Positions 35,549 through 39,579 of a stretch of 64,000 nucleotides of DNA are shown here, piece by piece. The stretch covers positions 186,001 through 250,000 of the forward strand of contig JAIXMN010000035.1 in the NCBI GenBank assembly GCA_025716815.1. Direction: 5' to 3'. Numbering within the stretch: position 1 is the first letter of the stretch; every line of letters starts with the position of its first letter. The notes under the pieces were generated by a model. It ran no database searches and was not told the origin of the DNA. It was given only the letters and a program-made list of their open reading frames with translations. The DNA comes from Dichotomocladium elegans. Lineage: Eukaryota; Mucoromycota; Mucoromycetes; Mucorales; Lichtheimiaceae. Made by a program: the position numbers and the translations under genes.

Positions 35549-36785
35549 TTAAGCGGACACTTGCTCATAGCGGGGCGTGTATTCGGGCAAATCCAAGTCG
35601 ACTTGGATCGCGTCATCGCCGCCAGTTGTGGGGATAGCACGCGTTCCAACGAGCTGTTGCGGTTGTTCCGGAGAGATCTGTAGAGCGGAAGCCGTAGTGG
35701 GATTAGCTGGAAAGTCTGTGATGATGATGGGAAAGGTTAGGACGAGTGGCTCTGTCTGGGTGGAGGAAAAATGGATGGCCATCTGGCAGCGATGGGAAAT
35801 TTCCAAAAATGGATCGAAATGGTGTGTGCGCAGTGCGGGGTGTGTCAACGGAGCACGAATGAAATGGGTCTCTGAGCTAGTGGCAAAGGTGGGTGGGTGA
35901 TAGGTTGTCGATGGGAACCTTCGCGGCACCGGTGGTAGGTTGTGAACACCAGTTTTGGTTGAGAACCTTTAAGGGAGACGCGAGAGAAATAGTATCAAAG
36001 CGCATCAAGGTACATCACGGGTGGGGAGGGCGGGTTTACCTGTACGTCTCCTGTTCCTCAATAGCAAATTCGATGCGATCCACCTCGACCCATTCCTTTT
36101 CAACGCTCCAACGAAGTGCAGCAACCAATTCGCCTGATTCAATAGCAACAGCCTTAGGAACCTCAACAGACCATTCGAACCAGTCCCTGACGCCGTGGTG
36201 CTCCACACTCGGGATGACTGCTGCCGGACCTGGCAAATAATGTCGCTTGACCGTTACTGTCCGTTGCACCTTTTGCTTCTTTGAATTAAACGATGTGGAT
36301 CCGTCCCGGACGAAGCTCGCCACAAGTGTGTAATCAACAAACGCGTGCTTGGCCTTGATCGACGGCGGCAGATGAATTGGCAGGTGGAAGCCGAAATCAA
36401 TCGATGGTGCTCCGGTAAAGATCAGCTCTTTCTCGACCTCGCAGACAGTCATGGAGGTCTGCACATGCGTCGTCGACATGCCTTCGTGGTTCGGGACAAT
36501 CAATGCAGGTACCTGAACGTCGAGACCTGCCCGGCCGGTCAGCTGGAGCGTGATGCGGTTCCACTTGATTTTGCGATCGTGGAAAAGAACGTTTCCCATC
36601 AATTTTGTGCGAATCTGAGACATGGGATTATTTTGCGTCGCCGGTCCAATGAAGTAAACAGGGCTATCCACAACCAAGTCTATGGCTGTACACGAGAGTG
36701 AGGGGTTCTTCGGAGTAGGGTCTCTGGTGGCTGCTGCTGCTGCTGCAATTGTTCGGGAGCTATTGTGGATCTTGAGTAACTTCAT
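35549..36785 (-). CDS. Second arrestin-like protein
   Basis: Exons 36785-36040 and 35966-35549 give 387 residues. The N-lobe begins about residue 38 (VVDSPVYFIGPATQ) and continues KLMGNVLFHDRKIKW, FHLPIHLPPSIKAKHAFVDY (arrestin-N end) and VKRHYLPG. The C-lobe contains DWFEWSVEVPKAVAIESGEL and VDRIEFAIEEQETYR. Exon 2 supplies the final C-lobe strands and a tail ending LDLPEYTPRYEQVSA. It differs clearly from the arrestin-like protein at the left edge (no long Ser-rich tail), so the two are not recent duplicates. The short N-terminal Ala run precedes the domain. The tail has P-E-Y and P-R-Y but no perfect PPxY, so direct binding to a Nedd4-type ligase is uncertain. Confidence 0.8.
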
Positions 36786-37016: not shown

Positions 37017-39579
37017 TCAATCCTCTTCTTCATCGGCCGTGCTCAGCCATTCAATGAATTTGGAACTCTTATTTTTGAGCTCACTCTTGTCCGTCAAAAT
37101 GTCGTACCAGCCGATAAATACTTCCTCGTCCACAAGGTCATTGTCATACCATGTTGAGAATACCACGCTCGTCTTGCCCATCATTTGTGGACTGCGTTGA
37201 GTCACAAACTTTTCCCAGGCCTTGAGCAACGTGCGTTGATCAGTTGTCGTTTTAACAAACTACATGTGTGTATGAGATTGCGCTACGAATTCCTCTTTCC
37301 AAAACAACACCACATACCGTCTTAAACAACCCAATTCGTGCCTGGAGAGTTGTTTTGACGCTCGATGGGTGGTCTTCTAGAAGACTGACTAATAAAATAT
37401 ACAGTAACTGTCGCTTGGACAGATCGTTACGGATCTCCAGCTTGGTCACTTCCTTAACATCGCTCGAGAGCCCACTGACGCTTCCGCCCGCGGTACTTGT
37501 GGGCTGCTGTTCTGAAAAGAACCTTTTAAGATCCTTTATAATGCCTTCTTCCTGAGCCATTTTGCCTGGAGTCGGCGAGGGCGTTTTGGAGGGAGGTGTC
37601 CTAGTTGGAAGCGCGTCAGTTTTTGGATAGTATAAGACATCTTCGAACACACTTTCTTGATTCTCTTACATATCCATTTTCGCCTGCTCCTCTTTGGATA
37701 AGTGAACAATTTTCATCCATGACTTGTTTGTCTGCTGTAAATTTAGTGTCAGATTTTACATATCAGCGCAATATAATCACTCGTCTCTTCTTGAACCACT
37801 CACACTAATTCGCCCTTCATTCATGACATCCTGAAGCGGATTCGCATTACGCTCTTGCGACTTGATGTTCCGTAGTTGTTGCTGTTCCCGCGCTGTAGGC
37901 TTGCAAGTCGTGTCATTAGTGCTCGAAGCGCCACTTGTACTTGTGCAGCCATCGTAACGGTTGGCGTTGCTTTCGGTACCAGCGCGAGTACGCCATGAGC
38001 CCTCTGCCACTGAAGAATCCGCGACCCGTTGTTGCTGCTGCTGCTGCTGCTTTTGGTTTGACGCCGACGCTGAAGAAGACCTGTGACCTTCATCTGACCG
38101 CGATTTGGTATTATTCGTGGCCGGGCGTTCCTTTAGTTCACCTAGCCCATGCGCTATCATATATGCATGAATATGATATATAGAATTGAATACTCGCGTC
38201 GTCTCCCCTCTTTCTTTTCCCAGCTTTCATATATTGAATCCTACCCCTTCCACTACTTTACCAAAATGACACTTCGGTCCATACTGACAAAAGCTGTCCT
38301 TCATGAATCGCTCGCATAATTTGGTCTTGTAAAGAGGATTGTTGTTCATGTCTGGGTGCGTTGACTTGCCGTTTCCTTCAGTGTTGCTGGGTATTACAGC
38401 AGGTATGGCTCCACCTGACAAAGCGTCATCCTCTGCTGTAGGAGCCCTCTCACGAAGCTCTGCCACGCCGTGGGCAAAGGTACACTTGGTTCCATAGGAA
38501 CAAGATCCCTCTGTCTCAAACCGCTCACACAGTCGGGTTTTATACCATGGATTGATTTGCTGCTGGTGCTGTTGATAGGAATGATGATGCCCTCCACCAT
38601 TCACTCCTCCACTACCACTACCACCACCATTCCCGCCACTGGTGCTAATCGAAGACTCGCCTCCATTAGCATTACCCCCTGCCACACGTCGCACACTTGC
38701 TCCCGACGATCGTTGCTGAAATCCCGTTGACCGAGATACCAATCCGGATGGTGAGAGTGTTCCTCCCGCTGCAGGAGATAAGGATGCTGAGGAAAAGGGA
38801 GTCACGGTGGTCGCTGTTGTTGCCATTGTCTGACGATGATGGTTGCTACCTTGACGTTGCTGCTGCTGCTGCTGTTGTTGTTGTTGTTGTTGCTGTTGCT
38901 GTTGCTCCTTGCGGTTTTTTCTTTGCTTGGCCTCAATAAATTTTTGGGCATGCATAAACATCTCCACCATGCTCTTGAATATGACTTTTTCAGATGCCAT
39001 CGCCTGATTACACCAATGAAAGTGGACGCCATCCGCTCCAGGCAGGAGCCGGACATGGTTGTCAATAATTTGGGCTAATCGATAGACGACCTTCTTTGGA
39101 CTAAGGTGCGAGAGACACAGACACAGACATACACACGCGCACACACACACAAGCATAGAAAAATCAGAGCGATGCAATACGTCTGCGGAATCGCGAACTT
39201 GGAGTTTACCGAGTGCCTGACAGGTAAGTCAGTTCTATCTTAAAGCCCTCTTCAATACGGAGGTCTTTGGGACTTAGCCCTGTTGTCTCAAAAGCCTCAC
39301 GCAATGCGCATCTAGAATAATAAAAGCAAATGGACAGATCAGCTTTTCCCACTTTATTAATCTTCTCAGCTTGACCACAAGGATTACTTTTGGTGGCTTG
39401 CTCTTGCTGTGTATGTTTGCTTACTTTACTTCGTCTTCTTGACCAATCACTTGCCCTTTAGGACAGAACCAGTGCTTCTTGTTTGTAAATGAGTCGTTTA
39501 ATAGTAAAAATTCGACGTTTCTCTGCAACCGATATATGATAAGTCCAGCGTAAAGATTGGTTTGAAAAGACTTGTCCAT
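37017..39579 (-). CDS. Fusion protein: Ap4A-hydrolase-like Nudix domain, two CCCH zinc fingers, eIF5-type W2 domain
   Basis: Seven exons (39579-39425, 39311-39210, 39100-38262, 38153-37804, 37734-37670, 37651-37318, 37259-37017) join in phase to 695 residues. Residues 1-130 resemble NUDT2 (diadenosine tetraphosphatase): AGLIIYRLQRNVEFLLL, HWFCPKGQVIGQ, then the Nudix box with LREAFETTGL, and EEGFKIELTYLSGTRPKKV. In the box the second of the paired catalytic glutamates is Thr, so activity is doubtful. After poly-Gln come two YKT(R/K)LC-type CX8CX5CX3H fingers (about 268-293 and 343-370) as in tristetraprolin, which bind AU-rich RNA. The C-terminus (about 560-695) is a W2 domain with VDEEVFIGWYD and the acidic aromatic box FIEWLSTADEEED, as in eIF5 and eIF2B epsilon. 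Likely an mRNA-linked translation regulator (inference). Confidence 0.85.
38856..38907 (-). repeat. CAG/CAA repeat coding for poly-glutamine
   Basis: Mixed CAG and CAA codons between the Nudix and zinc-finger parts of the fusion protein. Confidence 0.9.

What the first reader, a model, noticed from the sequence alone, without database searches (positions are those of the whole stretch)
37017..39579. Nudix (Ap4A-hydrolase-like) - CCCH - CCCH - W2 fusion
One in-phase gene joins a NUDT2-like domain, a tristetraprolin-type tandem zinc finger and the eIF5/eIF2B-epsilon W2 domain. The parts suggest a protein that binds AU-rich mRNA, contacts eIF2 or other initiation factors through W2, and senses a dinucleoside polyphosphate or cap-like ligand. 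That would link alarmone levels to translation or mRNA decay. I know of no described system with this arrangement, though similar fungal proteins may sit unannotated in databases.
Basis: partly seen in the sequence, partly recalled or inferred. Interest (0 to 1): 0.82.

Follow-up and report, generated by a model that had tools for sequence, protein, structure and literature searches.

The report
Fungal pseudo-Nudix mRNA-binding translation regulator
This fungal gene really does encode one protein joining a nucleotide-binding (Nudix) domain that has lost a key catalytic residue, two RNA-binding zinc fingers and a domain used by translation initiation factors; the combination is widespread in early-branching fungi and was already catalogued in 2025, but what it does is untested.

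Summary
On the minus strand, 37017-39579 encodes one seven-exon gene (678 aa): Nudix, CCCH, CCCH, eIF5-like W2. Of 135 relatives with a readable Nudix domain, 121 show the whole order. The closest, from Lichtheimia, aligns end to end at 56% identity and supports five of six splice joints. The architecture is not new: Pasterny et al. 2025 (PMC12210691) list it as Nudix 'subfamily A', presumed hydrolases.

New here: the second Glu of the REUXEE box (a metal ligand) is acidic in 0 of 135 (one gap), while NUDT2 ligand-pocket residues K42, Y82, K89 and aromatic 128 are kept in 129-133 of 135. The Nudix domain therefore probably binds without hydrolysing, as in NUDT21/CFIm25, although the other box acids often remain. 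Both fingers carry R/K where tristetraprolin has E (154 of 155 each) and are widely spaced, so AU-rich specificity is doubtful; U-rich binding is likelier. A Trp motif precedes W2 (90 of 138; shuffle mean 1.7).

Most likely: an mRNA-bound regulator that docks on eIF2beta or eIF3 through W2. Alarmone control is possible, unproven.

The parts
37017..39579 (-). whole coding span of the Nudix-CCCH-CCCH-W2 gene, 7 exons, 678 aa
   Evidence: exons 39579-39425, 39311-39210, 39100-38262, 38153-37804, 37734-37670, 37600-37318, 37259-37017; alignment to P0001
38923..39555 (-). NUDT2-like pseudo-Nudix domain, aa 9-145, interrupted by introns 39424-39312 and 39209-39101
   Evidence: E62 equivalent is Thr; K42, Y82, K89, F128 equivalents kept; fold, on relative P0001; coordinates
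38467..38544 (-). CCCH zinc finger 1, aa 272-297 (lead-in YKTRL)
38146..38331 (-). CCCH zinc finger 2, aa 343-368 (lead-in YKTKL), split by intron 38261-38154
37696..37725 (-). conserved Trp linear motif KSWMKIVHLS, aa 486-495, in the linker before W2
   Evidence: pattern in 90 of 138 relatives, mean 1.7 and maximum 5 in 50 shuffles; region identity
37020..37458 (-). W2 / eIF5-CTD-like HEAT domain, aa 552-678 (Pfam part 605-678), with both aromatic-acidic boxes; intron 37317-37260

Best explanation
A fungal mRNA-binding regulator of translation initiation. The two zinc fingers hold uridine-rich mRNA. The W2 domain docks on the lysine boxes of eIF2beta (or on eIF3c), as the eIF5 and 5MP C-terminal domains do, and so changes start efficiency on the bound mRNA, most simply by competing with eIF5. 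The Nudix domain no longer hydrolyses. It keeps most of the NUDT2 adenine/polyphosphate pocket and works as a binding module for a nucleotide or an RNA 5' end. Shown here: one gene model supported by relatives, domain order, conservation, loss of one box Glu, pocket retention. Inferred: loss of hydrolysis, RNA preference, eIF2 contact, direction of regulation, ligand.
For: Single gene and conserved order. NUDT2 E62 equivalent acidic in 0 of 135 members (134 other residues, one gap); K42 129, Y82 133, K89 133, aromatic 128 133 of 135; all four together in 128 of 135. In the same genome the four other Nudix loci whose alignment to NUDT2 spans the box (L008, L009, L011, L014) keep EE. Roles in ligand binding come from PMC4734340 (passages). 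In another Nudix enzyme a Glu of this box, Glu60 of DHNTPase, coordinates metal 1 (PMC5526541 passage; that it equals E62 is recalled). Precedent: NUDT21 also has EI in place of EE (PMC5389931 passage), is called catalytically inactive, and binds Ap4A at the RNA site (PMC4856261, PMC7705103 passages). Median identity to the window over 57 relatives: Nudix 56%, fingers 76%, W2 42%, against linkers 10-23%, so the Nudix is under constraint. The C-terminal domain with aromatic-acidic boxes is the eIF2beta-binding site of 5MP1 (PMC4176352 passage); both boxes fit my patterns in 135 of 162.
Against: I found no experiment on any member. Other acids often remain: E58 in 96 of 135, E61 as E or D in 118 of 135, both in 80 of 135, and an acid at position 110 in 90 of 135. 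The first Glu of EE, proposed as the catalytic base in related enzymes (PMC5526541 passage; position recalled), is thus mostly kept. Pasterny et al. call the signature well preserved with at least two metal-ligand glutamates, while noting substitutions. Human Lys89 does not touch the sulphate in its own structure; only the Plasmodium equivalent does. Glu130 of NUDT2 is kept in 0 of 135. A fifth own-genome Nudix locus, L010, reads REVNEH in six-frame translation, possibly past an exon end. W2 in eIF4G binds Mnk, not eIF2beta (PMC4402527 passage). Most members of the new subfamilies in PMC12210691 are predicted nuclear.
Confidence: 0.5

Rival explanations
1. An mRNA-decay adaptor of the TTP kind: the fingers bind the mRNA, the Trp motif and disordered linkers recruit a deadenylase such as CCR4-NOT, and W2 only takes the mRNA off initiation factors.
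For: Best finger matches in solved structures are TTP and TIS11d. A conserved Trp motif in a low-confidence, probably disordered linker resembles effector-docking motifs in general (recalled, not tested).
Against: Finger spacing and lead-in differ from TTP. I did not look for the TTP NOT1-binding motif. W2 would be unexplained as a conserved part.
Confidence: 0.2
2. An active Ap4A or RNA 5'-end hydrolase delivered to mRNAs: the fingers and W2 target the Nudix enzyme, which trims caps, Np4 ends or free Ap4A despite its altered box.
For: Databases name several members bis(5'-nucleosyl)-tetraphosphatase. Docking in PMC12210691 favours NADPH, NAD+, Ap3A and Ap4A across the new subfamilies (section read). 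E58 and an acid at 61 are both kept in 80 of 135.
Against: The second Glu of EE is never acidic (0 of 135) and E58 is also lost in 39 of 135 (Asn in 20; for example the RNT and RAA boxes of Glomeromycotina and Umbelopsis proteins). Human NUDT2 E58A and yeast Dcp2 E153Q appear as mutants in entry titles; that these block catalysis is recalled. Docking does not test turnover.
Confidence: 0.15
3. The Nudix domain is only a protein-protein scaffold without a small ligand, and the protein is a general initiation regulator (5MP-like).
For: Nonenzymatic Nudix proteins exist (PMC5389931 abstract and passages); W2 is conserved.
Against: A scaffold has no obvious reason to keep the adenine-stacking Tyr and the pocket Lys residues (Y82 is the most conserved NUDT2-shared residue).
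Confidence: 0.15

Closest known systems
Fungal Nudix 'subfamily A' (Pasterny et al. 2025, PMC12210691)
   Same: Same architecture (Nudix with zf-CCCH and W2 in most of 84 proteins), fungi only, distantly NUDT2-related, expression seen in Glomero-, Mortierello- and Mucoromycota.
   Different: Treated as presumed hydrolases; the sections I read do not discuss which Glu this subfamily lost, the finger type, the Trp motif or a W2 role (their Figure 4A may show the substitution).
Human NUDT2, asymmetric Ap4A hydrolase
   Different: NUDT2 has RETQEE in the box; here the second Glu of EE and Glu130 are lost and the domain is fused to fingers and W2.
NUDT21 / CFIm25
   Same: Degenerate Nudix box with EI in place of EE (Ile is the commonest residue here, 63 of 135); Nudix in an RNA-binding protein.
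   Different: Different Pfam family (PF13869), 3'-end processing; absence of CCCH and W2 is recalled. Its box also lacks the first Glu (RL), which is kept here in 96 of 135.
eIF5 C-terminal domain and 5MP/BZW
   Same: W2 HEAT fold and both aromatic-acidic boxes.
   Different: Pfam finds no other translation-factor domain in the window protein (a weak TFIIA match lies in the Q-rich linker); own-genome eIF5 is a separate gene (L003).
MEX-5 and TTP/TIS11 zinc fingers
   Same: C-x8-C-x5-C-x3-H with YKTxL lead-in and conserved aromatics.
   Different: Linker 26-123 residues instead of TTP's 18 (recalled); R/K where TTP has E; the solved MEX-5 finger has K there.

Membership tests
Fungal Nudix subfamily A | PF00293 with zf-CCCH and W2 in one protein | tested here: met
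   window; 57 relatives
Fungal Nudix subfamily A | clusters with the published subfamily A sequences | not tested
Nudix hydrolases (active) | GX5EX7REUXEEXGU box intact | tested here: not met
   window GQVIGQEDEVKCALREAFETTGL; second Glu of EE acidic in 0 of 135. Some active Nudix enzymes have altered boxes too
Nudix fold | alpha-beta-alpha Nudix fold | tested here: met
Ap4A hydrolases (NUDT2) | Ap4A hydrolysis | not testable with these tools
   needs an enzyme assay
TTP/TIS11 proteins | two CCCH fingers | tested here: met
TTP/TIS11 proteins | fixed short linker and (R/K)YKTEL lead-in | tested here: not met
   linker 51 in window, 26-123 in 155 relatives; E at that place in 1 of 155, the weak hit P0164. 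TTP's 18-residue linker is recalled; its E is seen
W2-domain translation factors (eIF5, eIF2B-epsilon, 5MP) | W2 HEAT fold with two aromatic-acidic boxes | tested here: met
W2-domain translation factors (eIF5, eIF2B-epsilon, 5MP) | binding to eIF2beta lysine boxes | not testable with these tools
   needs pull-down or ITC

The most novel reading that the evidence does not exclude
An ancient fungal alarmone receptor for translation: the dead Nudix domain is an Ap4A (or Np4-capped RNA) sensor that, as in CFIm25, competes or cooperates with RNA, and so switches U-rich mRNAs between eIF2-engaged and repressed states during stress. I know of no other Nudix-to-eIF2 signalling protein (recalled). It is kept across several early-diverging fungal phyla, and no named Dikarya member was listed in my searches.
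Probability: 0.2. Interest if true: 0.85.

Novelty: new member of a known kind. Interest (0 to 1): 0.52.

Why it matters
Ap4A has long been called an alarmone without a clear receptor that acts on translation. A conserved protein that keeps most of the NUDT2 pocket, has lost a box Glu, and is fused to an RNA-binding unit and an eIF2-type docking domain would make that question directly testable in fungi. It also warns that members named bis(5'-nucleosyl)-tetraphosphatase may not be hydrolases.

Tried and rejected
Two or three separate genes: rejected, because one exon carries part of the Nudix domain, finger 1 and most of finger 2, and P0001 aligns across the joints. Chimeric gene model: rejected by recurrence. 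Recent Mucorales-only fusion: rejected; names include chytrids, Piromyces, Coemansia and Dimargaris, Basidiobolus, Olpidium, Glomeromycotina and Mortierella relatives (higher taxa recalled, except Sorochytrium). A second NUDT2-like gene in the same genome: one search found only this gene at E 0.001 besides one weak match over residues 111-204, which include the polyQ tract (L024); one search lists 11 other Nudix loci. Dikarya members: none among the names listed; one search listed only 120 of 152 hits, some proteins are unnamed, and the searches need shared 5-residue words, so absence is not proven. NUDT21 is not among the 50 rows, which excludes nothing.

Literature: 'nudix' with 'CCCH' and 'W2 domain' found no paper; 'nudix', 'tristetraprolin', 'eIF5' one plant review; 'nudix domain', 'CCCH', 'early-diverging fungi' (two of three) five papers, PMC12210691 among them. 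Only the open-licence library was searched. The claim that R/K in place of E relaxes MEX-5 specificity (Pagano et al. 2007) is recalled; only its uridine-rich site was seen, as a passage in PMC9846511. One search found no source; the listings gave no direct source either (passages of PMC2873481 and PMC9846511 read).

Counts: 169 proteins were collected, clustered at 90% identity by the source, related by descent, and so not independent. Dropped as ordinary CCCH proteins: P0089, P0091, P0165-P0169, leaving 162. Of the 27 of 162 without the second W2 box, most printed tails are truncated or lack W2; P0014 and P0015 look like W2 ends that my pattern missed. For the Nudix count 12 of 169 had too short an N-terminus and 19 were gappy, leaving 138; P0091, P0161 and P0169 were then removed, leaving 135. 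The 138 of the Trp-motif count is a different set. The Trp pattern was written after I had seen the consensus; a stricter earlier pattern matched 70 of 162. Own-genome L001 (eIF2B-epsilon), L002 (5MP/BZW) and L003 (eIF5) were named by reading translations.

Full report
What is there. The stated span holds one gene on the minus strand. Six GT-AG introns must be removed. The 678-residue product has, in order, a Nudix domain (aa 9-145), a long Q/G/S-rich linker, a first CCCH finger (272-297), a second CCCH finger (343-368) with 51 residues between the last ligand of one and the first of the other, a linker with a Trp motif (486-495), and a full W2 HEAT domain (552-678) (the full W2 extent by homology to the model of P0001). 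The upstream neighbour is a divergent TAF9 gene; the downstream one, on the same strand, has an arrestin-N domain. Both lie outside the span.

Is it one gene? The 839-nt third exon runs without a stop from aa 86, inside the Nudix domain, through finger 1 to the CHF of finger 2. The residues AHG that complete finger 2 open exon 4. The Lichtheimia hyalospora protein P0001 aligns from end to end at 56% identity; five joints are gap-free and the fifth intron lies beside a two-residue gap in a poorly conserved stretch. In 57 relatives (chosen from the 91), 54 match NUDIX, 57 zf-CCCH and 55 W2 at E 0.01. In 121 of 135 with a readable Nudix region the order Nudix, finger, finger, first W2 acidic box is complete. 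No cDNA of this organism was available.

How wide is the family? Three searches of about 5.8 billion proteins gave 91, 152 (120 listed) and 60 hits. Names include many Mucorales, Umbelopsis, Endogone, Mortierella and relatives, many Glomeromycotina, Calcarisporiella, Basidiobolus, Dimargaris and Coemansia, Olpidium, many chytrids and Piromyces. The weakest hits are ordinary finger proteins such as ZFP36. No Dikarya name was listed, with the limits given under Tried and rejected. Sorochytrium (Blastocladiomycota) has a protein (P0090) with two fingers and a W2-like end but no Nudix in its current model.

The fingers. In 155 relatives with two fingers, finger 1 has Y and F at the two aromatic places in 154, and finger 2 is always aromatic at both. 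The residue two before the first Cys is R or K in 154 of 155 for each finger, where TTP and TIS11d have E; the exception is P0164, a weak hit that may be an ordinary TTP-type protein. The solved MEX-5 finger has K there. MEX-5 binds 9-13 nt sites with six or more uridines (PMC9846511 passage). That R/K at this place relaxes specificity is recalled from Pagano et al. 2007 and was not seen. With linkers of 26-123 residues the two fingers are probably independent modules. AU-rich binding as in TTP is therefore not supported; U-rich binding is more likely.

An anatomical feature I have not seen described. A pattern W-x-x-[VITL]-[VILR]-x-[LVMAI], typically WMKVVEL, sits in the linker before W2 in 90 of 138 proteins against a mean of 1.7 (maximum 5) in 50 shuffles of the same linkers. 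The pattern was written after seeing the consensus and relatedness inflates the number, but linkers keep a median 10-23% identity while this stretch keeps 41%. It is probably a docking site for a partner not yet known.

How it most likely works. The fingers select mRNA, W2 brings eIF2 or removes it from eIF5, and the Nudix pocket adds a nucleotide- or RNA-end-dependent control. Competition with eIF5 would repress; tethering eIF2 could also activate. The sequence cannot decide between these, and I favour repression because 5MP proteins are reported to inhibit eIF2 (PMC4176352, abstract passage).

What was known. Pasterny et al. 2025 (PMC12210691; passages, outline with abstract, and sections 13-16 read) already list 84 such proteins as Nudix subfamily A, fungi only, most with W2 and zf-CCCH, distantly related to NUDT2, with expression in three phyla. 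They treat all new subfamilies as hydrolases whose signature is well preserved with at least two metal-ligand glutamates, while noting substitutions. In the sections I read, neither the particular Glu lost in subfamily A nor a function for the fusion is discussed; their Figure 4A may display the substitution. So the layout is known, the gene is a further member, and the pseudo-enzyme reading, the finger type and the Trp motif are what this work adds.

Noticed in passing
L005 (G000:C57:1767861-1768121): A long open frame (579 aa) with low-complexity acidic tracts and a W2 domain (48 bits); not recognisable to me as eIF5, eIF2B-epsilon or 5MP.
   Followed up: no
P0090 (Sorochytrium milnesiophthora, Blastocladiomycota): Two CCCH fingers and a divergent W2-like end without a Nudix domain; either a truncated gene model or a pre-fusion form.
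   Followed up: partly
P0026 (Fennellomyces sp. T-0311): A diverged relative with fingers, W2 and a strongly altered Nudix region; possibly a paralogue.
   Followed up: no
P0018 (Mucor velutinosus), P0141 (Coemansia sp. RSA 1199): Database naming or gene-model problems: P0018 is labelled an acyltransferase; P0141 also carries PF00107 and PF08240, probably two genes merged.
   Followed up: no
window 38857-38904: A run of 16 glutamines (aa 152-167) directly after the Nudix domain; the longest Q run in the closest relative P0001 is 5, so it varies in length.
   Followed up: partly
window 40613 to about 41427 (+) and 36036-36785 (-): Neighbours: a TAF9 gene (TFIID-31kDa matches in two pieces, exons not resolved) and an arrestin-N domain protein.
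   Followed up: partly
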